A stretch of 64,000 bases of DNA from Microcoleus sp. FACHB-672. Its GTDB lineage: Bacteria; Cyanobacteriota; Cyanobacteriia; Cyanobacteriales; Oscillatoriaceae. The first letter of the stretch is position 1, and the number at the start of each line of letters is the position of its first letter. The notes beneath the pieces are model-generated. The model saw only the letters and a program-made list of their open reading frames with translations, had not been told where the DNA came from and searched no databases. Position numbers and translations under genes: made by a program. The stretch covers positions 1-64,000 of the forward strand of contig NZ_JACJOU010000016.1 of NCBI RefSeq assembly GCF_014695725.1, written 5' to 3'. This document shows, one piece after another, positions 18,436 to 42,369 of the stretch.

Positions 18436-20004
18436 CTACTGAACGTCGATAGAATAAAAGCCTCTGATGAAATCAACAACGACATTAATTGGTGGGATAG
18501 CAAACAGTTGAGAATTTCCCTGGCCGGCACTCATTTTCGGATTTGTAGCGCTCGCTGAGTTCATAAACCGTTTTCCAAAACTGGGATCGTGATAAACACT
18601 CAAACTTTGATCGCTGGAATTGAGCAAAATTGTGTGAGTGGGAGCGTTGAAAAAACTAGCTCTGCGCTCCATCGCCGGAAAAATTTTTGACAGCTCAATC
18701 GCATTAACTTGGTTCAGTGTTTGACTCAGTGCTGTGCTTAACTGCTGGATGCGCCTGAGTTCTGGGATGCTGAGGTGGCTAGTTGCGTGCGCCCGGATCT
18801 GCTTGATCAGTGTGATGATATTTCGTTGAGTCGCAGCAGCGTTTTCAAAGGGAAGAATGGCGATATAAGCGGTGGGAAATAATTGCTCATCGTTGTCTAC
18901 CCGAAATGTCAGTACAGTTCTGCGGTAGCCAACTGTAATACTCGGAGGTTGGCTCAAGCCGGCATATTGCAGAGCAATTTGATAGTAAGCATTTGCTAAA
19001 GCAAAATTCGCCTCTTGATCCAGGGGTGCATCGATGACAATTCGTACAGTCGGGGGCGTTTGATTAAAAAACTTTTTAGAGTCTTCTGGCTCGAAGCGGT
19101 GGAGTTGGGTGTGATCGCCATGCGGACTCACGTCAACCCACTCACAAATCATCGCGTCTGTTTTTAAGCCAAATCGTGAAACTCCATAAAGTTTTGCGCC
19201 GGTTAAGGTAGCACCGCTGAGATCGGCTCCCACCCATTCCGCTCGGATCAAATTGGCTTGGGTGAGATCGGCATGAACTAAACTGGCATTTAATAAATTG
19301 CTGTTGCTCAAGTCTGCGCCAATTAAATTTGCCCCACTCAATTTGGCATCACTGAGGTTGGCCCATTGGAGATTAGCCCCGCTGAGAGCGGCCCATCTTA
19401 GGTTCGCGCCACTGAGGTCGGCTCCACTGAGGTTAGCCCGATTAAAGTTAACGTGTCTGAGTTCAGTGTTGCTCAGATTTGCCCCGCTAAGATCGGCCCC
19501 ACTGAGGTCGGTTTGGTTCAGTTTGGCTTGCTCTAAGTTGGCACCGGCAAGAGATGCGCCCCTAAGATCGGCTTCACTTAAGTTTGCTCCACTCAAATTG
19601 GCTTGTCTAAGTTTGGATTCTCTTAAGTCTGCTGCGTTTAGGTTCGCCTCGATCAGGTTGGCTCGGCTCAGCTCGGCACGGATTAGCTCAGCTCGAATGA
19701 GGGACGCTTGAATGAGTTCGGCGTCGCTGAGGTTCGCCCGCACGAGGTTGGCTACATTGAGAATCGCCCCGTTTAATTTAGCTTTGCTGAGATTGGCTCC
19801 ACTCAATCGGGTGACATTGAGTTTGGTGCCGGAGAGGTTGGCACCGCTCAAATTCGCTCCACTCAGATTGGCGATACTCATGTTCGCCTGACTAAAGTTG
19901 GCTCCACTCAGGTTGACTCTGCTTAGGTTAGCTTCACAGAGGTTGACGCCGGTAAACTCTCTTTCACCGGCTGCATATCTTTTTAGGAGTTCCTCAACTT
20001 CCAT
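18436..20004 (-). CDS. Pentapeptide-repeat protein 1
   Basis: About 522 residues. After a short head (MEVEELLKRYAAGEREF) come some 50 pentapeptide repeats of the A(N/D)LSG type up to about residue 290, which fold as a right-handed square beta-helix. The remaining 230 residues form a globular C-terminal domain (FFNQTPPTVRIVIDAPLD, TVLTFRVDNDEQLFPTAYIAILPF) with no family I can name. The start is set at 20004 because the neighbouring paralogue begins at the same point; an in-frame ATG four codons earlier is the alternative. No transmembrane segment is seen. The repeat fold is sometimes a DNA mimic, but here only the fold is supported. Confidence 0.9.
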   Translation of the reverse strand: MEVEELLKRYAAGEREFTGVNLCEANLSRVNLSGANFSQANMSIANLSGANLSGANLSGTKLNVTRLSGANLSKAKLNGAILNVANLVRANLSDAELIQASLIRAELIRAELSRANLIEANLNAADLRESKLRQANLSGANLSEADLRGASLAGANLEQAKLNQTDLSGADLSGANLSNTELRHVNFNRANLSGADLSGANLRWAALSGANLQWANLSDAKLSGANLIGADLSNSNLLNASLVHADLTQANLIRAEWVGADLSGATLTGAKLYGVSRFGLKTDAMICEWVDVSPHGDHTQLHRFEPEDSKKFFNQTPPTVRIVIDAPLDQEANFALANAYYQIALQYAGLSQPPSITVGYRRTVLTFRVDNDEQLFPTAYIAILPFENAAATQRNIITLIKQIRAHATSHLSIPELRRIQQLSTALSQTLNQVNAIELSKIFPAMERRASFFNAPTHTILLNSSDQSLSVYHDPSFGKRFMNSASATNPKMSAGQGNSQLFAIPPINVVVDFIRGFYSIDVQ

Positions 20005-20065
20005 CAGGGTTACCATTCCAATATTTCTTACAGTTAAAACTCTGTTCTCAAGGGGGTTTAGTTCA

Positions 20066-21589
20066 TTACTGGCTCGGTAAAAAATGCAAGCCTTGTATAA
20101 AACTCATCACGACACTTATCGGGGGGAGGGAAAATTGCTGACCGTCCTTTAAAGTGCCGGCAGCAAGCTCGACTACTTCAGCGCTGTTCATCCAGCGTTT
20201 GCCGAACCCCGCGTTATGGTGGACATCTAATGTGCGATTCCCAGAGTTGGTAACGATCGTCAGTGTAGGCGCTTGGAAAAACTTTTCTCGCTTGATCAGC
20301 CGTGAAAATGTTTCTACTTTTTTAATTTCTTGCAGCTTTCCCATCGCTTGATTGAGGAGATTACTCATTTCTGGGGAGTCGATCATTTGCACTAAATGAA
20401 CAATTTTTTCTTGATTGATTAGCGCATCCTTAAAGGGAAGGATAGCGACATAAGCGGTAGAAAATAATCGTGTATCGTTACTTATCCTAAATGTTAATGT
20501 TGTTCGGCGACCGCTCACTTCTATATTGGGAGGGTGGATCATGGCCGGATATTGGTGAGCGATTTGATGGTAGGCAACCGCTAAGGCTAGATGAGCGTCC
20601 GGGTTGAGAGGCGCATCAATGATGATTTTGACGGTTGGCAGTGTTTGGTTGAAAAACTTTTTAGATTCTTCTGGGCTGAGCCGGTATATCTGAGAACGAT
20701 CACCGTTCTCGCTCATGTCCACCCATTCACAGATCAAGCCTTCAGTTTTTAGTCCATAACGTAAGACTTCATACAGCTTTGCGCCGGTTAAGGTGGCTCC
20801 CGATAAATCGGCTCCCATCCAATCAACTTCTATTAAATTTGATTGGCTTAGATCCGAGTAAACTAAGCTGGCATTGAGTAAGTTGGCGCTGCTTAAATCT
20901 GCCCCTCTTAAGTTCGCTCCGCTCAATTTTGCTTCACTTAAATCTGCCCATCTCAGGCTTGCCCCGCTTAAATCTGCCCATCTCAAATTGGCTCCGCTGA
21001 GATCGGCTCCAACGAGTTTGGCTTGAGAAAGATTGGCGCGTCTGAATTCTGCGTTTCTGAGGTTGGCTCCGCTTAAATCCGCACCTCTTAAATCGGTTTC
21101 TCTAAGGGTTGCTCGCTCTAAGTTGGCTGATTTTAGGGAAGCATTCGTGAGATCTGCTTCGCTCAAGTTGGCACCGGCAAGGTTTGCTTGCCTGAGTTTG
21201 GCTTCTCTTAAGCTGGCACCGTTGAGGTTCGCTTCGCTAAGGTTGGCGCGACTTAGTTCCACTCGAATCAGTTCAGCCCGAATTAAGGCAGCTTGAACGA
21301 GCGTAGCATCGCTGAGATCGGCGCGGATCAGGTTTGCAACGTTGAGATCTGCCCCGTTTAGGTTCGCGCCGCTGAGATTGGCACCATTGAGTTTGGCAAC
21401 GTTGAGTTTGGCATGACTTAAATTTGCTCCACTTAGATTTGCACCCCCTAAATTGGCGATACTCAGGTTCGCCTGACTCAAATTGGCTTCACTTAGATTG
21501 ACTCGACTCAGGTTGGCTTCACAGAGGTTAACAGCAGTAAAGTCCCTGACTCCAGATGCGTATTTTTGTAGGAGTTCCTCGGTTTCCAT
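20066..21589 (-). CDS. Pentapeptide-repeat protein 2 (tandem paralogue)
   Basis: A 507-residue paralogue of the next gene downstream, with the same head (METEELLQKYASGVRDF), a similar run of pentapeptide repeats and the same C-terminal domain (FFNQTLPTVKIIIDAPLN, TTLTFRISNDTRLFSTAYVAILPF). The two clearly arose by tandem duplication and lie 61 bases apart on the same strand, so they may be co-transcribed, this one first. Preserved length of head, helix and tail suggests both are functional. The C-terminal domain ends with QFSLPPISVVMSFIQG in this copy and LFAIPPINVVVDFIRG in the other. Confidence 0.9.
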   Translation of the reverse strand: METEELLQKYASGVRDFTAVNLCEANLSRVNLSEANLSQANLSIANLGGANLSGANLSHAKLNVAKLNGANLSGANLNGADLNVANLIRADLSDATLVQAALIRAELIRVELSRANLSEANLNGASLREAKLRQANLAGANLSEADLTNASLKSANLERATLRETDLRGADLSGANLRNAEFRRANLSQAKLVGADLSGANLRWADLSGASLRWADLSEAKLSGANLRGADLSSANLLNASLVYSDLSQSNLIEVDWMGADLSGATLTGAKLYEVLRYGLKTEGLICEWVDMSENGDRSQIYRLSPEESKKFFNQTLPTVKIIIDAPLNPDAHLALAVAYHQIAHQYPAMIHPPNIEVSGRRTTLTFRISNDTRLFSTAYVAILPFKDALINQEKIVHLVQMIDSPEMSNLLNQAMGKLQEIKKVETFSRLIKREKFFQAPTLTIVTNSGNRTLDVHHNAGFGKRWMNSAEVVELAAGTLKDGQQFSLPPISVVMSFIQGLHFLPSQ

Positions 21590-23354: not shown

Positions 23355-24626
23355 TCACAAGTCTCGACGCGAGAGAAGAACAGCCTCGGCCCCAACCCCG
23401 AAAACCCAATCAAAAAACGGAAGGTGGCCCTCTGGTGCTTTGAGAGAGAAAGTTAGCTCATTGTAGTATTTCTTCGCACCATTCACACGCCATCCCACTA
23501 AGTCGCCCAGGTGAGATTCATTTCTATAATCGATTTTACCACCAGCCTCGAGCCAAAAGCGCTTTTGTACAGAAAAACCAAAATGCCCGTTGCTGTATTT
23601 TACCCAAAGTTGATCGATGGTGCGGAGGTCAGTGCAGGGAAAATTATGAATGTCTTCGCCTCTCAGCCAGCCTTCCTTTTCTCGGTTGCCAGCTTTTAGC
23701 ATCAGTTGCGCTGTTTCTTTATCTGCTTCTTTCCAACTTCCCGCTTTTAAGTAATCCCGCAATTGGCGATAATCTATGCCTTTTTCTGAACGTAGATCAT
23801 CCGTGTCTAATTTAAATAATTTCAACCAGTCCTGCACTGATTGAGGGCGATTTTCTGCGTGTAGCGCCATGCCTGCCAGAATTGCATCATTCATCGGCCC
23901 ACTAATTCTCTGATTGAAATGTGCCGGTGGCTGTAATGAATCTCTGATACTTCTCTTCCAAGCAGGAAGCGGCACCTGCCCCGTCAGCAAGTAATAAAGC
24001 GTTGCTGCTAAGGCATAAACATCGGTAAACTCTCCCCGCCTTTCTCGCTTCTCATACTGCTCAATAGGTGCATAACCTTGAGTACCACCTACAGTATGAG
24101 TCTGAGTCAAATCTGGGATAAACTCCCGGGCAATGCCAAAATCAATCAGAACGGCTTCCGAAAGATGAGAGCGCACCATGATATTTTTTGGGTTCAAATC
24201 CCGATGCAGCAAACCTTTATCGTGGACAATTGTTAGTGCTTCACCAATTTGCTGGATATATTGCAAGGCTTCCATTTCCGACAAAACACCACAAGTTTTG
24301 ACGCGCCGAGATAAATCTTCCCCCTCGATATATTCCATTGCAATACAGGGAAGCGACTCGTGATGGAAGACATTTTCAATCTGGACAATGTGAGGGTGCC
24401 GACATACAGCTAGCCGTAGTGCCTCATCCCGAAAGTCGTGTTTATATTTGTCTCGGAAATCAGCGAAATCTGGGTTGTCCATCACCTCATCTTTTAACGT
24501 TTTGATGACAACCGGCTTACCCTGTCTGTCTTTGGCGAGATAGGTGATGCCAAAACCGCCCTGGCCTAATTTCTTTTCAATAACGTAGCGATTGCCATAT
24601 AACTGGTGCCCAGGATGCCAAACCAT
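23355..24626 (-). CDS. Ser/Thr protein kinase fused to a GUN4 domain
   Basis: A 423-residue fusion. Residues 1-270 are a Hanks-type kinase: P-loop LGQGGFGITYLA, ATP lysine in VVIKTLK, catalytic loop HRDLNPKN, metal loop DFGIA, and GYAPIEQYE in the activation region. The catalytic-loop lysine normal in HRDxKxxN is Asn here. Residues 290-423 form a GUN4 domain (DYRQLRDYLKAGSWKEADKETAQLML, LRTIDQLWVKYSNGHFGFSVQKRFW). Free-standing GUN4 binds Mg-protoporphyrin and stimulates Mg-chelatase; the kinase-fused forms may sense porphyrins but this is not shown. The gene lies 96 bases downstream of the DUF350 operon on the same strand, with no clear terminator between. Confidence 0.93.
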   Translation of the reverse strand: MVWHPGHQLYGNRYVIEKKLGQGGFGITYLAKDRQGKPVVIKTLKDEVMDNPDFADFRDKYKHDFRDEALRLAVCRHPHIVQIENVFHHESLPCIAMEYIEGEDLSRRVKTCGVLSEMEALQYIQQIGEALTIVHDKGLLHRDLNPKNIMVRSHLSEAVLIDFGIAREFIPDLTQTHTVGGTQGYAPIEQYEKRERRGEFTDVYALAATLYYLLTGQVPLPAWKRSIRDSLQPPAHFNQRISGPMNDAILAGMALHAENRPQSVQDWLKLFKLDTDDLRSEKGIDYRQLRDYLKAGSWKEADKETAQLMLKAGNREKEGWLRGEDIHNFPCTDLRTIDQLWVKYSNGHFGFSVQKRFWLEAGGKIDYRNESHLGDLVGWRVNGAKKYYNELTFSLKAPEGHLPFFDWVFGVGAEAVLLSRRDL

Positions 24627-24722
24627 AAGAGAAGATCTCTCGACAACTGCATTAATTTTCGCACATTGGTTTAAAGGGCATCACTTACGCATCAAAAACC
24701 TTATTGGCTTGCAGAGACTGCC

Positions 24723-25589
24723 TCAAAAAGCCCAAGCAATTAAAAAAGAAGCCGCAATATAAGCAAACGCTTCAATTAAACCGGCTCCTAAATTTGGTAC
24801 TTCCTGATTCACAATCTCATCAGATATTTTTACCCCTGGAACTAATATCAAATCAGCCAGCCAGCGAATGGCAATCAGGGAAAGTAAGCAAAATACTAAA
24901 ATTAATCCATACTGACTAAAACTGACAACCCAGCCTTCAAACTCTGGAGAAAATGCTACTCGAACAATATTACCGGTGGCAATTAATAAGCCGGCAAGGG
25001 CGACTCCTGCGGCGGGGTTATTGCGTTTTTCAATTTCTCCGAATACATCGTATTTTGTGACAATAGGGTAAACAACACTCACTAAAACCAGTACCGCTAA
25101 ACCGATTAACCAGCAAACAAACCCAACCAGCCAACTGCCGCTATCTCCTGCCAGCGCAGCGTTAAGAATTAGCCCATTTGCAATATGACTGCCGGCTTCT
25201 ACAGCAGCAGCCCCAACATTACGTTCTTGGATAATTTCACGCACACAATCAAACCGACGCAAAATTAAGCGATCAGCCACCCAAGCGCCAGCCAGCATCA
25301 ACAAAATAACCGTTGCACCATAGGATGCTAAATTCAATAATTTGTCTTGCCAAGTCCCTAAATTTTTGTCTAAAGCACCCCCCAAGGCGAGAACAATACC
25401 GAGATAGTAACCCACTAATGCAATGGCAACGGCTGGATTATCTTTAACAAACAGTTCCAGATTTAATTGGATTCGCCGAAATAGCTTTTGGTAAGCAAAT
25501 TGTCCTAACCAAAACACAGTAAAGCCCACAGCTAATTCTAGAATAATTAGTCCTGATTGATTGAGTTTATCCAGCATCCATTGGTTCAT
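24723..25589 (-). CDS. DUF350 family membrane protein (two repeats)
   Basis: A 288-residue integral membrane protein with about eight helices arranged as two internal DUF350 repeats; each carries the N(P/V)..A(I/V)A.....G family pattern, seen as KDNPAVAIALVGYYLGIVLALGG and KRNNPAAGVALAGLLIATGNIV, with a further ERNVGAAAVEAGSHIANGLIL. DUF350 proteins are found with PspA-type envelope-stress and polyamine-linked gene sets in other bacteria. The ATG overlaps the stop of the Fem-like gene by four bases (ATGA), so translation is coupled. It closes a four-gene run. Its molecular function is unknown. Confidence 0.88.
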   Translation of the reverse strand: MNQWMLDKLNQSGLIILELAVGFTVFWLGQFAYQKLFRRIQLNLELFVKDNPAVAIALVGYYLGIVLALGGALDKNLGTWQDKLLNLASYGATVILLMLAGAWVADRLILRRFDCVREIIQERNVGAAAVEAGSHIANGLILNAALAGDSGSWLVGFVCWLIGLAVLVLVSVVYPIVTKYDVFGEIEKRNNPAAGVALAGLLIATGNIVRVAFSPEFEGWVVSFSQYGLILVFCLLSLIAIRWLADLILVPGVKISDEIVNQEVPNLGAGLIEAFAYIAASFLIAWAF

Positions 25590-26650
25590 TTGCTATCTCC
25601 TTCGAGGTTGCGTAATAGGCTAATTAGTGTATCGGCTAGACGATCATAAAAAAAGTAATCATGAGCGCCAATTGTCGTTACCGACACTCCGCCAAATTGA
25701 CTTTTAAACTTAGAAAAATTCGCATAAGCATGATTAGGTTCGCGGCTAAACCCATAAAAATCATAAACAGTGCAACCCCGTGCTTTTGCCCGTTGCATCG
25801 CCGCCCAATGTAGGGCGTAAGTTGCCATCACTTGCCGGTGTTCAAAACTACGCCCACCATAGAGATATGTTGCGCGATTTCCCCAATATACAACTAAGAT
25901 TGCTGCTAAAACTTTTCCTCGCCAAGTGGCTAAGCCAATCTCTGCCATATTAGCGGCAAATAAACTTTGACAAAGGTTAATAAAAAATCCGTAAGGTTCG
26001 CCAAAAAATTGCTGGCGCTGCACTGTTTCCCAAAAAATATCGTAAAATAGTGGAATTGCTTGTGAGTTATCGGTGAATTCAGTTTCCACACCATGCCGTT
26101 TACTTAGCCGCAAATTGTATCGGCCTTTTGGTTTCATCGCTGCTAAAATTTCTGCCTCATTTGGGCGCAAATCAATGAGGAGAGTTTCAGAGGGTAATAA
26201 ATCTGCCGGTGCCCTCACAAACTCTTCAAGGCAATCTGGTTTTTCAGTCCATACTGGTTCAATCCGCAGGGCGATTGCACCTACTTCTTTTGCTAAAATA
26301 GCGGCTGTTTCTTTGAGTAGTTGCATTCCTTCATCCGCATAAGCCGGTGGAAGTAGAGGACCACCTTGGGCAATTAATAAATTCGCTTGGCCTGAATGGG
26401 GATAGTAATAGAAAATGCACCCACCTACTAAGCTTTGTTCTAAAAATAAACCGTAACGAAAGGTTTTGTACCCTTCTAGTTCCTTGAAATTCGCCCATGC
26501 CCAGGATTGCATAAAACAGCCTACCGGCAGAGCTTTAGCGAGAGTATCCCACAAATTGCGTTCTGCTAAACTTAGTTGCCTGATTGTTAACGTTATCTCT
26601 TTTTTAGGAATAAGATTTTGTTCAGGTGAACCTGTTAGCTCATTCATCAT
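25586..26650 (-). CDS. Fem-like (FemABX/GNAT-fold) peptidyl transferase
   Basis: About 354 residues. The fold is the double-GNAT FemABX type: an N-terminal GNAT half (WDTLAKALPVGCFMQSWAWANFKE, GCIFYYYPHSGQANLLIAQGGPLLP) and a C-terminal one with PKGRYNLRLSKRHGVETEF, ATYLYGGRSFEHRQVMATYALHWAAMQRAKARGCTVYDFYGF. These are characteristic of lipid II:glycine or alanine transferases that use aminoacyl-tRNA. In this setting the substrate is unknown; cyanobacterial peptidoglycan normally lacks an interpeptide bridge, so another acceptor is possible. The start ATGATG at 26650/26647 overlaps the TGA of the upstream gene, so a longer frame to 26698 is unlikely. Confidence 0.88.
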   Translation of the reverse strand: MMNELTGSPEQNLIPKKEITLTIRQLSLAERNLWDTLAKALPVGCFMQSWAWANFKELEGYKTFRYGLFLEQSLVGGCIFYYYPHSGQANLLIAQGGPLLPPAYADEGMQLLKETAAILAKEVGAIALRIEPVWTEKPDCLEEFVRAPADLLPSETLLIDLRPNEAEILAAMKPKGRYNLRLSKRHGVETEFTDNSQAIPLFYDIFWETVQRQQFFGEPYGFFINLCQSLFAANMAEIGLATWRGKVLAAILVVYWGNRATYLYGGRSFEHRQVMATYALHWAAMQRAKARGCTVYDFYGFSREPNHAYANFSKFKSQFGGVSVTTIGAHDYFFYDRLADTLISLLRNLEGDSK

Positions 26651-28133
26651 TGTTGCTATCCGATGGATTGAAAATGTTAGAAAGCCAACTTCCTCCAATT
26701 CCTATAAGAACTAAACCTAAAATCTTAAGTTCCCAGTTAATGTAGCCGTCTGCATAATAGATGCTACTGCCCGAAGAATATCCACTGCTTGTTCCTGAAG
26801 AATACCCACTGCTTGTTCCTGAAGAATACCCTTTAGCAAACACTGCATCTGGCGTCAGTAGGTTTGCCATTAACAGCGTTACTGATAACATCATTAAAAA
26901 TTCAGCGGTTTTGGGAGGAAGGTTGACAATTGGCTGGCCGGCACGAATTTTTTCAGCTAATTGTTTGAGTTCACCGGCAATCTTTGGCGGAAGTTCCTGA
27001 GAACGCTCTAACAAAGTGTTCAATAAACGCGAAAGGTCGATTTCTCCTAACAGATGCCTGAGATATGCTAACCCTTCCCTTGTCATTTTAGGGCTGTGAT
27101 AGCGATGCTGCACCGGCAGCAATTTACTAATATTTGGTTGAGCATCAGGTGAAGCAGAAGATTCATACATTTGCTCTAGCCATGCCTGTGCCATTGATTC
27201 CAGCTTGAGCAAATCACGAGAACCTAATATCGCTGTCCCAGATTCCTGAATATCTAAAAAATTTATTGTCTTGCCGGCATTCTCTTTCTCTGTCAATTCA
27301 AACGAAGGATTGAGCAAATAATAAAATAGCTGGGGACACTCCAGTGTGTGAATCGTCACATCATGACGGCTGTTGGCAATTTCCTCTGAAAATACAAAAG
27401 TTTGAAATAGCTTTTCGTGAGTTAGCGTCTCTAAATCTTCAGGAAAGACGATAGCTTCTATCTCAGAAGCAATAATTTGTGCCTGAGAACCCAAAAAAAA
27501 GCCCCAATTTCCATAGCCATGACTGTGAAAAGAAGGAATCTCTAATTGTAATGGCTTGGCTTTCAATCCAGCCGATAATAAAGTTTGATACAAACACCAA
27601 AAACCGTTTGAGCGATTTTCAGGAGAAACCCCGTTGGTGCTAATAGTTCCGCCTGAGATGAGAACCCGATTGATTTGTTGAAACCATTCCCTACTGTAGA
27701 TAGTTGTATCTTCTGGACAAGTCGGATAAGTAAAATCGCAAATGATAGCGTGATAGGAATTATCTGCAACCGTCGAGACAAACTCTAAGGCTTCTTGAGG
27801 GTAAACTGTTACCCGATCATTTTCTAAGCTGCCGGTATTATAAGGCTTAAAAGCTGTATTTGCGAGTTCTAAAACTTCCGGGTTACAGTCCACTAAATCT
27901 ATATGACTGACTTGCGAAAACCTTAAGACATCTCGTGCGGCTAATCCATCCCCACCGCCACAGATGAGAACACGTAGATCGTTTTCTGGAAATCTTTGAA
28001 CGGCTAAAGCAATCGTTGGAATAACCAAATATTCATGATAAAGTGCCTCATCAGCAGTATCAAACTGCAAATCGCCATTGATATAGAAAGCGAGGCCGTT
28101 CGCGTGATGTTCAATAAATAGGGAAGTTGCCAT
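26640..28133 (-). CDS. Spermidine-synthase-like protein with C-terminal membrane helices
   Basis: A 497-residue protein. Residues 1-240 are a Rossmann domain of the spermidine synthase type: ADEALYHEYLVIP, the SAM-binding GGGDGLAARDVL, the acid of LVDCNPEV, and CDFTYPTCPEDTTIYSREWF at the position of the catalytic DSTDP motif. The first aspartate is kept, the second is Tyr, so the amine pocket differs. Residues 240-410 are a helical middle part unlike usual spermidine synthases. Two membrane helices follow (near 415-435 and 468-487), separated by a low-complexity GYSSGTSS repeat facing the other side. It lies seven bases after DUF4178 and overlaps the Fem gene. Aminopropyl transfer on or near the membrane is an inference. 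Confidence 0.85.
   Translation of the reverse strand: MATSLFIEHHANGLAFYINGDLQFDTADEALYHEYLVIPTIALAVQRFPENDLRVLICGGGDGLAARDVLRFSQVSHIDLVDCNPEVLELANTAFKPYNTGSLENDRVTVYPQEALEFVSTVADNSYHAIICDFTYPTCPEDTTIYSREWFQQINRVLISGGTISTNGVSPENRSNGFWCLYQTLLSAGLKAKPLQLEIPSFHSHGYGNWGFFLGSQAQIIASEIEAIVFPEDLETLTHEKLFQTFVFSEEIANSRHDVTIHTLECPQLFYYLLNPSFELTEKENAGKTINFLDIQESGTAILGSRDLLKLESMAQAWLEQMYESSASPDAQPNISKLLPVQHRYHSPKMTREGLAYLRHLLGEIDLSRLLNTLLERSQELPPKIAGELKQLAEKIRAGQPIVNLPPKTAEFLMMLSVTLLMANLLTPDAVFAKGYSSGTSSGYSSGTSSGYSSGSSIYYADGYINWELKILGLVLIGIGGSWLSNIFNPSDSNNDE
26770..26832. repeat. 24-bp tandem repeat in the spermidine-synthase-like gene
   Basis: Two full units (26770-26793 and 26794-26817) and a partial third (26818-26832) encode the GYSSGTSS loop. 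The unit is CCTGAAGAATACCCACTGCTTG plus TT, read on the plus strand. Copies differ at two bases. Confidence 0.85.
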
Positions 28134-28140
28134 CTGTTGA

Positions 28141-28785
28141 TTATCCGAATATTAGCAGATAAAGTCCCACAAGTAGGAACAAAGATGCTGCCACCACTTG
28201 CGCCACGGAGATTGAACGCGAATCTTGTGTTTGAGTGGGAGTAAAAACTCCTTTTTCAATATCAGAAAACTCTTCGGGTTTTACGACTTTAGACGTGTAA
28301 ACGTGCAATTCCCTATCCGGCCACGCTTCAATTGCTAAATTCCACTGGTGCGAACGATCCCAGTAATCCCAAGTGATGCGAGACGTGTTTTCCTCTTCTC
28401 CCTCATAACTACCTTGAGTTTGAGACTCAAAGTAGTAGTTTTTACCAAAGCATCGCAATTCTGGGTAAGGTGTTTTTTGCCCCTGCATATCCCCCCAAAG
28501 ATTGAGCAGCACGTTATCTTCAGAGTTTGGCTGGAAAAGAGCGGGATGAGCAATTTCTGAAGCGAGATACCAGTGGACGAGTGTTTCTGGATTTTGAGGA
28601 TCGACTTCTCGAAGCAAGTAATATTCTGTACCGCCTCCAGATCGCAGCAACCACTCGGCTGTTTCATAGCCATTGGCGTCTTGGTAGGTACTGTAATCTG
28701 TAACCTGCCATTGAAGGCCATGACACTTTACGCGATCACCGGCACGTAGCTGTTCGAGTTGATCTTGAATAGAAACAGAAACCAT
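28141..28785 (-). CDS. DUF4178 protein with C-terminal membrane anchor
   Basis: A 214-residue protein, first gene of the run. Residues 1-180 resemble DUF4178: IQDQLEQLRAGDRVKCHGLQWQV, WLLRSGGGTEYYLLREVDP, a paired tryptophan stretch ITWDYWDRSHQWNLAIEAWPDRELHVYTSK. The last 25 residues (ISVAQVVAASLFLLVGLYLLIFG) are one membrane helix ending at the C-terminus, so it is tail-anchored with its domain in the cytoplasm. DUF4178 commonly accompanies DUF350 and spermidine-synthase-like genes. Its exact job is not known; a beta-rich binding domain is likely. It is preceded by a strong inverted repeat at 28820-28894. Confidence 0.85.
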   Translation of the reverse strand: MVSVSIQDQLEQLRAGDRVKCHGLQWQVTDYSTYQDANGYETAEWLLRSGGGTEYYLLREVDPQNPETLVHWYLASEIAHPALFQPNSEDNVLLNLWGDMQGQKTPYPELRCFGKNYYFESQTQGSYEGEEENTSRITWDYWDRSHQWNLAIEAWPDRELHVYTSKVVKPEEFSDIEKGVFTPTQTQDSRSISVAQVVAASLFLLVGLYLLIFG

Positions 28786-29001: not shown

Positions 29002-29025
29002 TAAAAAAAGCCCGCCTAAGCGGAC
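29002..29025 (-). terminator. Rho-independent terminator
   Basis: On the minus strand GTCCGC-TTAG-GCGGGC forms a six-pair stem (one G-U) directly followed by seven T. It lies 35 bases after the stop of the exported-repeat protein gene. Confidence 0.85.
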
Positions 29026-29059
29026 TTAATGGGTAAAGTTAAGGTCTCAATCGCCCGAA

Positions 29060-30220
29060 CTATCTAGCCGCAATTTGATTCCAGACTAGAATAATCTCTT
29101 GCAAATTTTTAGGTAGCTGGTCTTGAATGCTATCTGCATAACGCGTAGTGCCGGCAGATCCAGTCAACGTCACTGTGATAAAATCAGCAGAGCCTTGGGC
29201 GGCTGGATAATTCAAACCCTTAAATTGAGAAAAACGCTGCTGCTCTAAAAATTTCTGAAACTGTTTCACTTGTTGGGTAGAAAGTCGGCGAATCTCGGTT
29301 TCATTGGTTGCGCCACTGTTATTAATCTCAACCTGAACGACTCGCCCATTCCGCTTGAGAATTGTTTCATAGGTACGACCGGCAAAACCACCAGTTGAGA
29401 TCGCCCGAAAAATCTCATCTTTCCCCAAAGCCGGCGGCATTTCACCGCTAGGGATCTGGGTTGCTTTGATGGATTTGCTGCCGCCGGCATCACCAATGTT
29501 GCTAGCAGACTCATCCAACACAACGACAGAACCCGTGTCATTGGTGCGATAAACCCACTTTTCTTGTCCGCTTGTCGCTTCTCCATCGTCCCTGACAACC
29601 GTCACTTCCCAACCGGGGACAATCGCTTCGGTGCACATCATATCAGGCTTATCGATACCGAGACAGCCATTGGGCCAATCCCGGCGTTCCGCCTTCACAA
29701 TTAGCAACACATCAGCGGGCACCCCCAACCGCTTGGATAAATCGCGCTTCACCGCATCGCCAACCGCTCCGGGCACATTCACCCCAGTCCCAGGCGGGGT
29801 ATTGGGCATCCGTACAGTCTTGCCGGTGCTATCGGTGCGGTAAATCCACTCTCTGGCACCGTCAGAGACAACAACTTGCCAACCTTCTGTCTGCACTTGA
29901 GCGCATAATTCGTCAGGACGAGACACTCCCAAGCACGGATCTGGCCACGTTTTGCGTTCTGCCTTGACAATGCGAAGCCTGCCCACAGGAATGTTCTGTT
30001 GGCGAGACAAGTCTTGGCGCACAGCGTTAGCAATCTTAGCCGGCAACCTGTTGTTGCGATCTGGGCGACCATTCAGGTTTCCCGGTGTGGGTTGGGCTTG
30101 TTTAGGGGCAGAGGTCGCCGCATCCATTAATATGATGCCGGCACCAAGAGACAAGATGCCGGTTAGCACCAGAGAAGAGACAAATTGAGAGTGCCGGTGA
30201 GAATTCTTAATTAATTTCAT
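29060..30220 (-). CDS. Exported protein with duplicated WP-x-x-CLG modules
   Basis: From the ATG at 30220 the protein has 386 residues: a basic N-terminus and hydrophobic signal (SSLVLTGILSLGAGIIL), then two copies of a roughly 75-residue module, LRIVKAERKTWPDPCLGVSRPDELCAQ...GWQVVVSDGAREWIYRTDSTG and LLIVKAERRDWPNGCLGIDKPDMMCTE...GWEVTVVRDD...WVYRTNDTG. Each module has one pair of cysteines that could form a disulfide outside the cytoplasm. The last 130 residues are a third domain (IFRAISTGGFAGRTYETILKRNGRVVQVEI). The longer frame starts with GTG at 30319 and would place a long, atypical extension before the signal. I do not know the family function. A shorter paralogue follows upstream. Confidence 0.75.
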   Translation of the reverse strand: MKLIKNSHRHSQFVSSLVLTGILSLGAGIILMDAATSAPKQAQPTPGNLNGRPDRNNRLPAKIANAVRQDLSRQQNIPVGRLRIVKAERKTWPDPCLGVSRPDELCAQVQTEGWQVVVSDGAREWIYRTDSTGKTVRMPNTPPGTGVNVPGAVGDAVKRDLSKRLGVPADVLLIVKAERRDWPNGCLGIDKPDMMCTEAIVPGWEVTVVRDDGEATSGQEKWVYRTNDTGSVVVLDESASNIGDAGGSKSIKATQIPSGEMPPALGKDEIFRAISTGGFAGRTYETILKRNGRVVQVEINNSGATNETEIRRLSTQQVKQFQKFLEQQRFSQFKGLNYPAAQGSADFITVTLTGSAGTTRYADSIQDQLPKNLQEIILVWNQIAAR

Positions 30221-30559
30221 AACTGAAAAAGGATATTGAGAATTGCGTTGCCTAGCAAATTTGAAGCAGTGGTTAAACGTAAATGATTTTCCGAACATTT
30301 CACCAGACGTTACAGACACATTGACGGCTTTTTTGTTCCATCTAAGCTACTGGATTCAGGTTGACGAATTCCCGACCGGGACAAAACATAAAAAAATTCT
30401 GTCAGCTAAAGATCCCAAGTAGAATTATTTTCAGTATAAAATCGGCTAATTGAATTCTACATCACCTTTTAGATTCACCCATTCAGGTGAGTTTGAAAAC
30501 TTGGAGGAACAAACCCCTGCTTTTAAAAGTCGTGCGAATGCTGTTGGCAACCGACCACA

Positions 30560-31019: not shown

Positions 31020-31502
31020 TTACTGGTGAGGCAATGAAGGCAATCCACTCACAATTTCTGTGAAAACCGGCATAACTGTTCCTTGATGTAGCTTGACTAG
31101 AGAGCCGGTTGCATTCGTGCGATACACCCACCGGCGAGGCCCACCGGCAACAATGACTTGCCATCCAGATACCCGCAATTGCGTGCAATCAGCACGATGA
31201 CCTTGCCGTTCCAGACACTCATTTCCCCAAGTATGGGGTTCTGCATGGACGATCCGCAGTGCCGAGGCCGGCATCTGTGCTCGTTCCGAGACATCTTCTA
31301 ATACAGCGTTGGCAACGGAAGCAGAAACGCTAGCGCTCACCTGAGAAGCCCTCGAAAAAGGGCCGGCGGTACGCGGCAAGGTGGAACCAACGCTGAAGTA
31401 TAAAATTGCAGTTAGCGCAACCGCCAAAACAAATGGACGAGGCTGGGTAGCAATTGGCTCGGAGGTGGCTTCGGCAGAACCATTGGTAATAATAGATTTC
31501 AT
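31020..31502 (-). CDS. Exported protein with a single WP/CLG-type module
   Basis: About 160 residues from the ATG at 31502 (MKSIITNGSAEA). A membrane segment or signal (PFVLAVALTAILYFSVG) is followed by one copy of the module present twice in the downstream paralogue: LRIVHAEPHTWGNECLERQGHRADCTQ...GWQVIVAGGPRRWVYRTNATGSLVKL. The WP is WG here and the two cysteines are kept. Gene, module and terminator shape all match the paralogue, so this is a duplication with loss or gain of a module. Function unknown; location probably periplasmic. Confidence 0.72.
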   Translation of the reverse strand: MKSIITNGSAEATSEPIATQPRPFVLAVALTAILYFSVGSTLPRTAGPFSRASQVSASVSASVANAVLEDVSERAQMPASALRIVHAEPHTWGNECLERQGHRADCTQLRVSGWQVIVAGGPRRWVYRTNATGSLVKLHQGTVMPVFTEIVSGLPSLPHQ

Positions 31503-31962
31503 AGTCAGCATCTTGAATCAGAGATATCAACTAAAAGTTCAATAATTAAAATTCAGTTGCACCCTGACTCACACCGTCTCCGGAACACCCTAAAACTTTT
31601 TTCCAGGGGGTTGCGCTGTTATAAGTTTTGGTAGAATATATACTTATTACTTATTGCGCTTAAGCAAGCGCACGGAGTTCTCTATCAGAAATTTGACGCT
31701 TGCCTACAGGGCATGGGTTCCACAAACCGTCTTATGCTTATAAGACTTGAGTAACCCCCTATTTCTTATTCTGCCGCTCTCGCTTCAATTTTTACACCCA
31801 GAAAATACTGAATCATCGTCAGTTACAAACCCAGGCGTATTACAACTTGTTAAGCGCTTGCTCATTAAGCAAACGCTTTCATTGATCATCTGGCGCTAAA
31901 CATCCCCTCTAACTGAGGGTAAAAACAATCACACCACGCCCCAATGCTTCACCGGCATCGTC
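31503..31962. other. Spacer with several hairpins
   Basis: No gene seen. GTCTTAT/ATAAGAC pairs at 31729-31746, and GCGCTT/AAGCGC near 31657-31672. Words of the type AAGCGCTTGC recur at 31852 and 31870. None has a U-run that would make a convincing terminator. Confidence 0.4.
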
Positions 31963-40395: not shown

Positions 40396-42369
40396 CTAGG
40401 GGCACAGACTCCACATCTTAATCGTGTCGTCAAAACTACCACTAATCAGGGTTTGACCTTGGGGGCTGAAAGCCAGTTTCACCCAGGATGAATGCCCTTT
40501 TAAGGTGCCAACCAGACCGCCGGTGCCCAACTGCCACAGCTTGATCGTGCCGTCCATATCGCCACTGGCGAGGGTTCGGCCATCGGGGCTGAAAGCAACT
40601 GATTGAATTTGGTCGGAATGACCGATAAAGGTATTTACTAACAGTCCACTGTCTAAATCCCACAGCTTGATTGTGTTGTCCCAGCTGCCAGTGGCGAGGG
40701 TTGCACCATCTGGGCTGATGGCAACTGACCAAACGGCGTCTGAATGACCTTTGAGGGTGTGACGCAGTTGTCCTGTGCGCCAATTCCATAGCTTAACCGT
40801 GTCATCAGAACTGCCACTGGCTAAAGTTTGGCCGTCTGGGCTGAAGGCAACTGATTGAACTTCTTCAGAGTGTCCCTGCAGGGTTCGCTGCTGGTTGCCG
40901 GCCCGCCAGTTCCACAATTTAATCGTGTTATCTTCGCTGGCGCTGGCTAGGGTCTGGCCATCTGGGCTAAAAGCGAGGGAAAAAATGGCTTCTGAGTGAC
41001 CGTTCAAGGTGTCCCGCAGTTCGCCGGTGCGAAGATCCCAGATTTTGATGGTTTTGTCTTCACTGCCGGTAGCCAGGGTTTGCCCATCTGGGCTAATGGC
41101 AACTGTCCAAACTGCACCGAAGTGGCCGGCTAAAATGGTTTTCAGTTGGCCGGTGCCCAAATCCCACAATTGAACGGTGCCGTCATAACTGCCGGTGGCC
41201 AAGGTTCGGCCATCGCCACTGACGGCGACTGACCAAAATGGGCCGCTATCAACGGCAAAAGTTCGCAGGGGTTGAATGTTGCTGTCCAGACGCGGGGCTG
41301 AGTAGCTAAGGTCTGGCAGGGTAATGGGCATTTCTTGGGGGTTGTAAGCGGTGTGTGGCACAGGAGCCGGCACACGAGCGCTGAGTGTGGCCATCAAAAT
41401 TGCGATCGCTGCACCACCGATGGCACCTGCGGCTAACCGCGTTTTTTGAGGGGTTGCCGGCGACACCAGTATCCAAGAATTCAGGTCTTTGAGGACTTGG
41501 GCGGCTGATTGGTAGCGCTTTTTGGGGCTACGTTCCAGCAGTTTGTCGAGGATCACGCCCAGGTGGGGATTCACCGGCGCACTCAAATAATCCCGCCACA
41601 CCCAAGTTTCTGTTTTAATATCGAACAGATCAAAGGGAGATAGCTGAGTCAGCAGGTGAATGCAAGTGACGCCTAAGCTGTAAAGGTCGGTGCTGGGAGT
41701 GGCTTTGCCTTGGGTTTGTTCTGGGGCAATGTACTCAGCAGAACCGCTAACGCGTTTTTCTGCCGGCAGACTGGTGCCGGTCAGTGTCACATCCCCATAA
41801 TCAACTAAAATCAGCTTGCCATCAGGGCGGCGAATGATATTTTCTGGTTTAATATCACCGTGAACGATTTGGTGGTTGTGCGCGAAGCTGAGAACCGGCA
41901 GCACATCTTTCAATAATTCGCGGATTTGGGGTTCGCTGAACGTGCCGATATCTGCGACTTCTAGGGCTAAGTTTTCCCCTTCTATATACTTTTTCACCAA
42001 ATATTGGTGGCCATCTTGCTCAAAAGATGCCCACAACTCAGGAATCAAAGGATGCTTGCCTAATTCATCTAGCTGTTTTGCGGTTTGGGAAAACGTTTTT
42101 GAATGTCGGTGTTTTATCCCTTGTGTTGAAGGTGAGGAAACAGCGGCGTCTGTGACGTTTTCACCGAAAAACTGCTTAATTACGCAGCGCGGTTGAGAAG
42201 GTTGATCTTCGTCAACTGCGAGAAAGGTTCGCCCTGTAGCGCCTTGACCTAGGAGTTGTATGACCTGGTAGCGATCTTTGAGCAGCAATTTTGCTCCGCA
42301 GCTCTGGCAAAAACCTGTACCATTATGATTCTGGGGATTCTGGCAATCGGGATTGAGACAATAACTCAT
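40396..42369 (-). CDS. Ser/Thr kinase with seven WD40 repeats (non-RD variant)
   Basis: A 657-residue protein. It starts with a zinc-ribbon-like CLNPDC...CQSC motif, then a Hanks-type kinase (about 30-310): LGQGATGRTFLA, CVIKQF, catalytic loop HGDIKPEN, DYGDV in place of DFG. A membrane helix (LAAGAIGGAAIAILMATLSA) follows near 315-335. The C-terminal 290 residues are seven WD40 repeats (SPDGQTLATGSEDKTIKIWDL and similar), forming a propeller on the far side of the membrane. The catalytic loop has HGD rather than HRD, so activation should not depend on loop phosphorylation. A paralogue is at 51585-53717. Confidence 0.94.
   Translation of the reverse strand: MSYCLNPDCQNPQNHNGTGFCQSCGAKLLLKDRYQVIQLLGQGATGRTFLAVDEDQPSQPRCVIKQFFGENVTDAAVSSPSTQGIKHRHSKTFSQTAKQLDELGKHPLIPELWASFEQDGHQYLVKKYIEGENLALEVADIGTFSEPQIRELLKDVLPVLSFAHNHQIVHGDIKPENIIRRPDGKLILVDYGDVTLTGTSLPAEKRVSGSAEYIAPEQTQGKATPSTDLYSLGVTCIHLLTQLSPFDLFDIKTETWVWRDYLSAPVNPHLGVILDKLLERSPKKRYQSAAQVLKDLNSWILVSPATPQKTRLAAGAIGGAAIAILMATLSARVPAPVPHTAYNPQEMPITLPDLSYSAPRLDSNIQPLRTFAVDSGPFWSVAVSGDGRTLATGSYDGTVQLWDLGTGQLKTILAGHFGAVWTVAISPDGQTLATGSEDKTIKIWDLRTGELRDTLNGHSEAIFSLAFSPDGQTLASASEDNTIKLWNWRAGNQQRTLQGHSEEVQSVAFSPDGQTLASGSSDDTVKLWNWRTGQLRHTLKGHSDAVWSVAISPDGATLATGSWDNTIKLWDLDSGLLVNTFIGHSDQIQSVAFSPDGRTLASGDMDGTIKLWQLGTGGLVGTLKGHSSWVKLAFSPQGQTLISGSFDDTIKMWSLCP

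What the first reader, a model, noticed from the sequence alone, without database searches (positions are those of the whole stretch)
23355..28785. Translation-coupled DUF4178 / membrane spermidine-synthase-like / Fem-like / DUF350 operon, with a kinase-GUN4 behind it
Four genes run on one strand with gaps of 7 bases or overlaps of a few bases, and a fifth follows at 96 bases. A SAM-binding aminopropyltransferase-like domain has gained two membrane helices and a SAM-independent Fem-type aminoacyl transferase is directly coupled to it. DUF350 and DUF4178 are known from genomic surveys to accompany PspA-type envelope stress genes and polyamine enzymes, but the Fem partner is, as far as I recall, unusual. 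The catalytic DSTDP-like site is changed to DFTYP. Inference: an envelope-linked conjugation system that adds an aminopropyl, amino-acid or similar group to a lipid or protein.
Basis: partly seen in the sequence, partly recalled or inferred. Interest (0 to 1): 0.75.

Follow-up and report, generated by a model that had tools for sequence, protein, structure and literature searches.

The report
Spermidine-synthase-like and Fem enzyme gene cassette
A conserved cyanobacterial gene set pairs a probably membrane-tethered relative of spermidine synthase with a Fem-type enzyme of a family that elsewhere takes amino acids from tRNA, and the changed active sites suggest that the pair modifies something at the cell membrane that is still unidentified.

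Summary
The four-gene run DUF4178 – SpmS-like – Fem – DUF350 is real and tightly packed and is a conserved unit: of 388 genomes of the class, 33 carry a strong Fem orthologue; 31 of these 33 have DUF4178 and SpmS directly upstream in this order, and 21 of the 31 also have DUF350. The kinase-GUN4 gene is probably only a neighbour (within one gene of 5 of 35 cassettes). In 37 of 37 Fem-type SpmS proteins (one clade, support 0.997) the donor-site and catalytic Asp are kept, but the acceptor-binding Asp of DxxDP and a nearby Gln are lost. Fem has Glu where FemX has Arg211. Best reading: a membrane-bound relay that aminopropylates an unknown acceptor, which is then aminoacylated. Against one uniform donor: 15 of 35 cassettes lie in genomes with no detectable SpeD. 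The DUF4178/DUF350/SpmS core is known (PMC11237479); a Fem partner was not found in the open-access searches. New variant of a known kind.

The parts
28141..28785 (-). DUF4178 protein, 214 aa, one C-terminal membrane segment (194-212); first gene
   Evidence: PF13785 2.9e-17; hydropathy 2.44; first gene in 35 of 35 cassettes
26640..28133 (-). Spermidine-synthase-like protein (SpmS), 497 aa: catalytic domain about 1-230, linker, hydrophobic stretch, PDAVFAKG motif, Ser/Gly/Tyr-rich stretch, second hydrophobic stretch
   Evidence: PF01564 3.9e-22; PDB aminopropyltransferases to 7.4e-24; residue pattern
27723..27737 (-). DFTYP (residues 133-137), counterpart of DxxDP: catalytic Asp kept, acceptor-binding Asp replaced by Tyr
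   Evidence: position checked; alignment of 57 SpmS/SpeE proteins
26829..26852 (-). PDAVFAKG (residues 428-435) right after the first hydrophobic stretch
   Evidence: position checked; PDxx[FY][AG]KG in 37 of 37 Fem-type SpmS
25586..26650 (-). Fem-type (double GNAT) aminoacyltransferase-like protein, 354 aa from the ATG at 26650
   Evidence: PF02388 3e-32; S. aureus FemX 6snr 1.9e-18, W. viridescens FemX 5.4e-06; start
24723..25589 (-). DUF350 (YjfL-type) multi-pass membrane protein, 288 aa
   Evidence: PF03994 5.8e-47, two stretches; hydropathy; in 21 of 31 cassettes of the class sample
29008..29027 (-). Terminator-like hairpin with T-run between the upstream gene and DUF4178
   Evidence: consensus match only (12 found in the region, 6.0 expected)
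23355..24626 (-). Kinase-GUN4 gene, 96 bases downstream: judged a neighbour, not part of the cassette
   Evidence: immediately downstream only in the window and L050; a 31-38% relative one gene away in L172, L174, L175; kinase domain only, 4.8 kb away, in L051

Best explanation
A membrane-associated two-enzyme modification cassette. Shown: the gene unit, its co-inheritance, the linked SpeD, the residue pattern. Inferred: SpeD supplies decarboxylated SAM (a linked copy at 15 of 35 cassettes; a canonical SpeD elsewhere in the window's genome). SpmS, held at the cytoplasmic face of the membrane by its C-terminal tail, transfers the aminopropyl group to an acceptor that is not a free diamine. Fem then puts an amino acid from aminoacyl-tRNA onto an amine of that product, most simply the primary amine that the aminopropyl group provides. 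DUF350 and the one-pass DUF4178 hold or regulate the enzymes at the membrane; DUF350 is dispensable in part of the family. The acceptor is unknown: a membrane peptide (including the fused Ser/Gly/Tyr tail) or a lipid.
For: Order kept in 31 of 33 Fem-bearing genomes of 388. In G044 and G053, of another class by the tool's grouping (bins with 7 and 9% contamination), SpmS and Fem are an adjacent pair; neither genome has a DUF4178 match. Fem-type SpmS is one clade, 37 of 37, support 0.997. Pairwise distances of SpmS and Fem correlate at 0.96 over 561 pairs of 34 loci (species relatedness not removed). Divergent SpeD beside 15 of 35 cassettes; in 8 of these 15 genomes, all that were searched, the cassette SpmS is the only PF01564 protein; Ser, His and Cys columns of SpeD invariant in the 8 linked copies aligned. 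D62 and D133 kept 37/37; second Asp of DxxDP lost 37/37 but kept in 12/12 classical and 5/5 canonical; Gln to Asn167 37/37. Roles of the Asp residues: passages of PMC6514230 on Arabidopsis spermidine synthase. Fem: Glu at the FemX 211 position and K332 in 38 of 38 with a residue there. Fem-like enzymes that aminoacylate small-molecule amines from aa-tRNA exist (passages of PMC12945691).
Against: 15 of 35 cassettes (family f29) lie in genomes without a detectable SpeD; a profile of linked and canonical copies finds nothing better than E 0.7 in 16 f29 genomes. So dcSAM cannot be the donor there unless made otherwise. Two of 33 Fem genes stand without SpmS in the stretch read (L161, L162); one is split over two frames (G507). 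G185 has a cassette-type SpeD but no PF01564 or DUF4178 match. The SpmS hydrophobic stretches are marginal. Order of the reactions, tRNA use and acceptor are untested.
Confidence: 0.4

Rival explanations
1. Polyamine variant: SpmS makes a polyamine from an unusual free amine, and Fem N-acylates it (acyl-CoA or aa-tRNA), giving a soluble polyamine conjugate.
For: Similarity to polyamine aminopropyltransferases; PF13480 GNAT hit of Fem, 3e-17.
Against: Loss of the amine-binding Asp and the Gln in 37/37; membrane partners; FemAB scores better than the GNAT model (3e-32 against 3e-17).
Confidence: 0.2
2. SAM-dependent enzyme: the Fem-type SpmS transfers a methyl or 3-amino-3-carboxypropyl group from SAM itself, at least in the SpeD-less f29 clade.
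For: No SpeD in the genomes of 15 cassettes; residue 25 is His and 21 is Glu in exactly those 15 and in none of 22 others (common descent explains it as well); a 7TM spermidine-synthase-like enzyme is a methyltransferase (passages of PMC10349129).
Against: The GGGDG Asp, whose replacement marks that methyltransferase, is kept 37/37; SpeD is linked to 15 other cassettes.
Confidence: 0.15
3. Protein substrate: the modified group sits on the Ser/Gly/Tyr-rich tail fused to SpmS (invariant PDxx[FY][AG]KG), which stands in for the separate small peptide ending in Gly-Lys of the other DUF4178 cassettes.
For: Motif 37/37; peptide ending in GK in 18 of 21 non-Fem DUF4178 loci read in long form, and in none of the 37 Fem-type loci with a GK-end filter.
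Against: By hydropathy and charge, judged by eye, the Lys should be outside while the enzymes are inside; the peptide also occurs with DUF4178 and DUF350 without an adjacent SpmS (L087, L144, L145); no residue is shown to be modified.
Confidence: 0.15
4. Conventional peptidoglycan bridge Fem that happens to sit beside an unrelated SpmS.
For: Closest solved structures are FemX enzymes; the FemX Lys36 counterpart is Lys or Arg in 39/39.
Against: Pairing in 31 of 33 and in a second class; the Arg211 counterpart is Glu; cyanobacterial peptidoglycan is generally held to lack such bridges (recalled).
Confidence: 0.07

Closest known systems
CesT/Tir-PspA operons with 7TM spermine-synthase, DUF350, DUF4178 and a lipoprotein (PMC11237479; passages)
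   Same: DUF4178, DUF350 (8TM) and a spermine-synthase domain tied to the membrane; SpeD in related variants
   Different: Window type has a Fem gene, no N-terminal 7TM part, a C-terminal tail with PDxxFAKG, no second Asp in DxxDP, and no GK-ending peptide; no PspA recognised by eye nearby (no profile search made)
Spermidine synthase / polyamine aminopropyltransferase (PF01564)
   Same: Sequence family, GGGDG donor-site Asp, catalytic Asp
   Different: Acceptor-binding Asp and Gln replaced; C-terminal linker and tail; below the NCBIfam cut-offs of all six models hit
FemX/FemAB aminoacyltransferases (PF02388) and the GNAT-fold aa-tRNA-dependent enzymes VlmA, DhpH-C, PacB, Orf11 (PMC12945691; passages)
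   Same: Fem domain, FK motif at K332
   Different: Glu instead of Arg211; paired with an aminopropyltransferase-like enzyme
Fungal 7TM N-terminal histidine methyltransferase (PMC10349129; passages)
   Same: Membrane-tied spermidine-synthase-like domain, which there modifies a protein
   Different: It has Ile at the GGGDG Asp position; the window enzyme keeps Asp

Membership tests
Spermidine synthase / polyamine aminopropyltransferase | Sequence family membership (PF01564 above cut-off) | tested here: met
   79.1 bits vs 22.9
Spermidine synthase / polyamine aminopropyltransferase | Donor-site Asp/Glu of GGG(D/E)G and catalytic Asp of DxxDP | tested here: met
   D62 and D133, 37 of 37
Spermidine synthase / polyamine aminopropyltransferase | Amine-binding second Asp of DxxDP and the later Gln | tested here: not met
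   Y/F/C/S/W/L at 136 and Asn at 167, 37 of 37; Asp and Gln in 12 of 12 classical and 5 of 5 canonical
Spermidine synthase / polyamine aminopropyltransferase | NCBIfam equivalog score | tested here: not met
   TIGR00417 84.5 vs 249.55 bits, PRK03612 199.8 vs 472
FemABX aminoacyltransferases | PF02388 above cut-off | tested here: met
   112.4 vs 24 bits
FemABX aminoacyltransferases | Catalytic Lys (Lys305 of W. viridescens FemX) | tested here: inconclusive
   K332 in 38 of 38 with a residue there lines up with a Lys of S. aureus FemX, but the W. viridescens FemX alignment ends before 305
FemABX aminoacyltransferases acting on UDP-MurNAc peptides | Arg211 (its phosphate-binding role is recalled, not read) | tested here: not met
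   E234 aligns with position 211 of chain 1ne9 by my count of the printed alignment; Glu in 38 of 38
FemABX aminoacyltransferases | Use of aminoacyl-tRNA | not testable with these tools
   needs an assay
DUF4178/DUF350/SpmS envelope-stress operons | DUF4178, DUF350 and SpmS encoded together | tested here: met
   in the window and in 21 of 31 cassettes of the class sample
DUF4178/DUF350/SpmS envelope-stress operons | SpmS fused to an N-terminal 7TM domain | tested here: not met
   window SpmS starts at the catalytic domain
DUF4178/DUF350/SpmS envelope-stress operons | PspA and CesT/Tir partner genes | not tested
   no profile search was made for them
AdoMet decarboxylase (the linked SpeD genes of relatives) | Cleavage Ser in ESH, His and Cys (roles recalled) | tested here: met
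   E60, S61, H62, H66, C81 invariant in 11 of 11 aligned: 8 linked, 3 canonical; 8 of the 15 linked copies were aligned

The most novel reading that the evidence does not exclude
A two-step relay that I found described nowhere in the open-access searches: a membrane-held aminopropyltransferase plants an aminopropyl amine on a membrane peptide or lipid, and a tRNA-dependent Fem enzyme caps that amine with an amino acid. In one clade the relay has switched its donor from decarboxylated SAM to SAM (Asp25 to His, SpeD lost).
Probability: 0.25. Interest if true: 0.85.

Novelty: new variant of a known kind. Interest (0 to 1): 0.62.

Why it matters
DUF4178, DUF350 and membrane spermidine-synthase operons are reported in bacteria (PMC11237479, passages) without a known product. 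The Fem variant gives a testable handle: two enzymes with readable donor and acceptor sites; a linked SpeD that, in eight searched genomes, accompanies a cassette SpmS which is the only spermidine-synthase-family protein there, so its deletion should hit this pathway; and a natural contrast between SpeD-bearing and SpeD-less clades. If the relay is real, it joins polyamine-type chemistry to tRNA-dependent aminoacylation at the bacterial envelope.

Tried and rejected
Kinase-GUN4 as a member: rejected, with a reservation. It lies immediately downstream in 2 of 35 cassettes (window, L050) and one gene away on the same strand in 3 related f29 loci (L172, L174, L175; 31-38% identity). Eighteen cassette genomes hold 3 to 17 GUN4 matches each, so some nearness by chance is expected, but a loose link is not excluded. 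SpeD presence by itself as evidence: rejected, 229 of 292 genomes of the phylum have PF02675; only linkage and the sole-copy SpmS pattern are used. A Fem/SpmS pair in other phyla: the best plasmid Fem hit (Methylobacterium nodulans, 32.7%) lies by an ABC exporter, with no SpmS annotated within 5 kb; of three plasmid SpmS neighbourhoods opened, the one with annotation (Novosphingobium) has SPFH, two DUF4178, DUF350, SpmS, an oxidoreductase and SpeD but no Fem, the other two records carry no annotation there. Chromosomes outside Cyanobacteria were reached only by one GTDB scan for close relatives (4 loci). A hidden SpeD in the f29 clade: none convincing. The GK peptide as the SpmS substrate: weakened by loci with DUF4178, peptide and DUF350 but no adjacent SpmS. 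Weak Fem matches (9 of the 42, E 1e-10 or weaker, among them a short fragment in G491) were not opened; of the 3 weak genomes none was opened at the weak match. Li et al. 2019 on SpeD (10.1042/BCJ20190561) is not held.

Literature basis: searches (open-access PMC only). DUF4178 occurs in one held paper, PMC11237479; its text has no 'FemAB' and its three 'Fem' strings are a journal name. Nothing is claimed about subscription papers. Papers seen as passages only: PMC11237479, PMC10349129, PMC12945691, PMC11107197 (not used in the argument), PMC6514230.

Full report
Observation. The first four are tightly packed: 7-base gap, 11-base overlap, 4-base overlap. For the 11-base overlap I take the Fem start at the ATG at 26650 (354 aa), which matches the starts in L035 and L051. 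Fem residue numbers below count from the TTG at 26698 used in the alignments; subtract 16 for the ATG start. The kinase-GUN4 gene follows at 96 bases. A terminator-like hairpin at 29027-29008 lies upstream of DUF4178, and none was listed in the DUF350-kinase gap, so the kinase may be read through in this strain.

Conservation. In 292 genomes spread over the phylum, DUF4178 occurs in 28 and a strong Fem orthologue in 9 of the 12 with any match: seven in this cassette, and two (G044, G053; another class by the tool's grouping, bins with 7 and 9% contamination) as an adjacent SpmS-Fem pair. Neither has a DUF4178 match, and no relative of the window's DUF350 was found beside the pair. In 388 genomes of the class, 42 have a Fem match at E 0.001 and 33 a strong one (best E below 1e-95). 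I read the neighbourhoods of all 33: 31 have DUF4178 and SpmS immediately upstream in the same order, 21 of these 31 have DUF350 downstream (in L168 in two pieces; in L173 the contig ends 0.7 kb after Fem), and two (G472, G351) have Fem without SpmS. With four further loci (L035, L050, L051, L052) there are 35 distinct cyanobacterial cassettes; L053 and L151 are the same contig and count once. Gaps: DUF4178 to SpmS, median 6 bases, 24 of 35 at most 20; SpmS to Fem, median 15, 19 of 35; Fem to DUF350, median 53, 9 of 24. Tight packing is thus typical of the first three genes and less so of DUF350. A kinase-GUN4 gene is immediately downstream in the window and L050 and one gene away in L172, L174 and L175, 5 of 35; L051 has a kinase domain 4.8 kb away. 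GUN4 matches number 3 to 17 per genome in 18 cassette genomes.

A missed partner. A divergent SpeD gene lies beside 15 of 35 cassettes: upstream on the same strand in some (L036, L053), convergent downstream in others (L031, L052), 2.2 kb away in L051. The eight copies aligned keep the ESH motif, His and Cys. Three more genomes hold such a SpeD elsewhere (G298, G392, G507); two, the window's own and L050's, hold a canonical SpeD and a second PF01564 protein elsewhere. In eight of the 15 genomes with linked SpeD, all that I searched, the cassette SpmS is the only PF01564 protein; G060 has a second, weak SpeD match. SpeD presence as such is common (229 of 292) and is not used as evidence. The remaining 15 cassettes, all of family f29, lie in genomes with no SpeD match, and a more sensitive profile finds nothing better than E 0.7 in 16 f29 genomes.

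SpmS. In an alignment of 57 proteins (37 Fem-type, 15 of the classical 7TM group, 5 canonical) the GGGDG Asp (D62) and the first Asp of DxxDP (D133) are kept in 37 of 37. The second Asp is lost in 37 of 37 (Tyr 23, Phe 8, Cys 3, Ser, Trp and Leu one each) but kept in the 12 classical and 5 canonical sequences counted. Three of the 15 classical rows were left out of the count: L002 and L007 are short copies from the genomes behind L038 and L042, and the L086 frame ends early. Gln at 167 is Asn in 37 of 37. In Arabidopsis spermidine synthase the counterparts of D62 and D133 hold the aminopropyl amine of the donor, the latter also deprotonates putrescine, and the second Asp of DxxDP binds the amine of the substrate (passages of PMC6514230). 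So the donor side looks intact and the acceptor side remade. All 37 Fem-type enzymes form one clade with support 0.997; inside it the f29 group is monophyletic but poorly supported (0.165). Exactly the 15 SpeD-less sequences have His at 25 and Glu at 21, against Asp at 25 in the other 22. This may mark a donor change; common descent explains it as well.

Tail. After the catalytic domain come a linker, a hydrophobic stretch, an invariant PDxx[FY][AG]KG (37 of 37), a Ser/Gly/Tyr-rich stretch of variable length and a second hydrophobic stretch; in G044 and G053 the part after the motif is a long extra domain. The motif resembles a signal-peptidase site (my reading, untested). Hydropathy is marginal: both stretches reach 1.4 in 19 of 35. 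In the other DUF4178 loci a short membrane peptide ending in Gly-Lys sits in the cassette: 18 of 21 loci read in long form (not L037, L045, L049), and none of the 37 Fem-type loci with the GK-end filter (the two calls used slightly different filters). I looked for it after seeing the first examples. In three loci checked (L087, L144, L145) it occurs without an adjacent SpmS.

Fem. Sequence profiles match S. aureus FemX (1.9e-18) and W. viridescens FemX (5e-06). FemX position 211 (Arg; also Arg in S. aureus FemX) aligns with E234, which is Glu in 38 of 38 orthologues with a residue there (the gap is the split gene of G507); the Lys36 counterpart is Lys in 30 and Arg in 9 of 39; K332 of the FK motif is kept in 38 of 38. 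The phosphate-binding role of Arg211 and Lys36 is recalled; the search for an open text gave none with 'Arg211' in the rows listed. Fem-like enzymes that load amino acids from tRNA onto small-molecule amines are known (passages of PMC12945691). An acyl-CoA-using GNAT role is not excluded (PF13480, 3e-17).

Mechanism. I hold it most likely (0.4) that SpmS puts an aminopropyl group on an acceptor at the membrane and Fem then adds an amino acid, most simply to the new amine. Gene unit, SpeD linkage and residue pattern are shown; both reactions, their order and the acceptor are inferred. The SpeD-less clade is the strongest result against a uniform dcSAM reading.

Known or new. The DUF4178/DUF350/SpmS set with 7TM-SpmS was described with PspA (PMC11237479, passages). 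A Fem partner was not found in the searches (open-access papers only). I file the window's cassette as a new variant of that kind, not as a spermidine synthase or a bridge-forming Fem, since an acceptor-site feature of each was tested and not met.

Noticed in passing
L038 7369-7599, L040 7438-7689, L044 10651-10845, L046 11675-11938, L145 10283-10540 and 13 more; L183 3840-3986: Short membrane peptide, Gly/Ser/Tyr-rich, ending in Gly-Lys, in 18 of 21 non-Fem DUF4178 loci read in long form; the Novosphingobium counterpart also ends in Lys. No Pfam or NCBIfam family above cut-off for the three tested in both libraries.
   Followed up: partly
L034, L163-L176 (family f29): Cassettes in genomes without a SpeD match; SpmS has His at 25 and Glu at 21 in all 15; DUF350 not found downstream in nine of the 15.
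   Followed up: partly
L078 10761-13883, L079 5592-8234: SpmS with a long extra domain after the KG motif, followed by Fem, in genomes without a DUF4178 match, in another class of the phylum.
   Followed up: partly
L172 8587-10107, L174 4536-6062, L175 8845-10371: Kinase-GUN4 proteins of 506-508 aa, one 227-aa gene away from Fem on the same strand, in three f29 cassettes; a loose recurrence of the window's fifth gene.
   Followed up: partly
L177 6895-7945: Fem of G507 reads in two overlapping frames: broken gene or assembly error.
   Followed up: no
L140 9807-10154: Cassette-type SpeD in G185, a genome with no PF01564 match and no DUF4178 match.
   Followed up: partly
window 29060-30319 and 31020-31511: Two minus-strand proteins share a repeated stretch of the type RIVKAE-x-WP-x-C-LG or similar, twice in the first and once in the second (by eye); no Pfam match above cut-off.
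   Followed up: no
window 18436-20016 and 20066-21589: Two adjacent, similar pentapeptide-repeat-like proteins of 526 and 507 aa, a likely tandem duplication (by eye).
   Followed up: no
window 40396-42369 and 51585-53717: Two kinase-like proteins with C-terminal WD40-like repeats (by eye).
   Followed up: no
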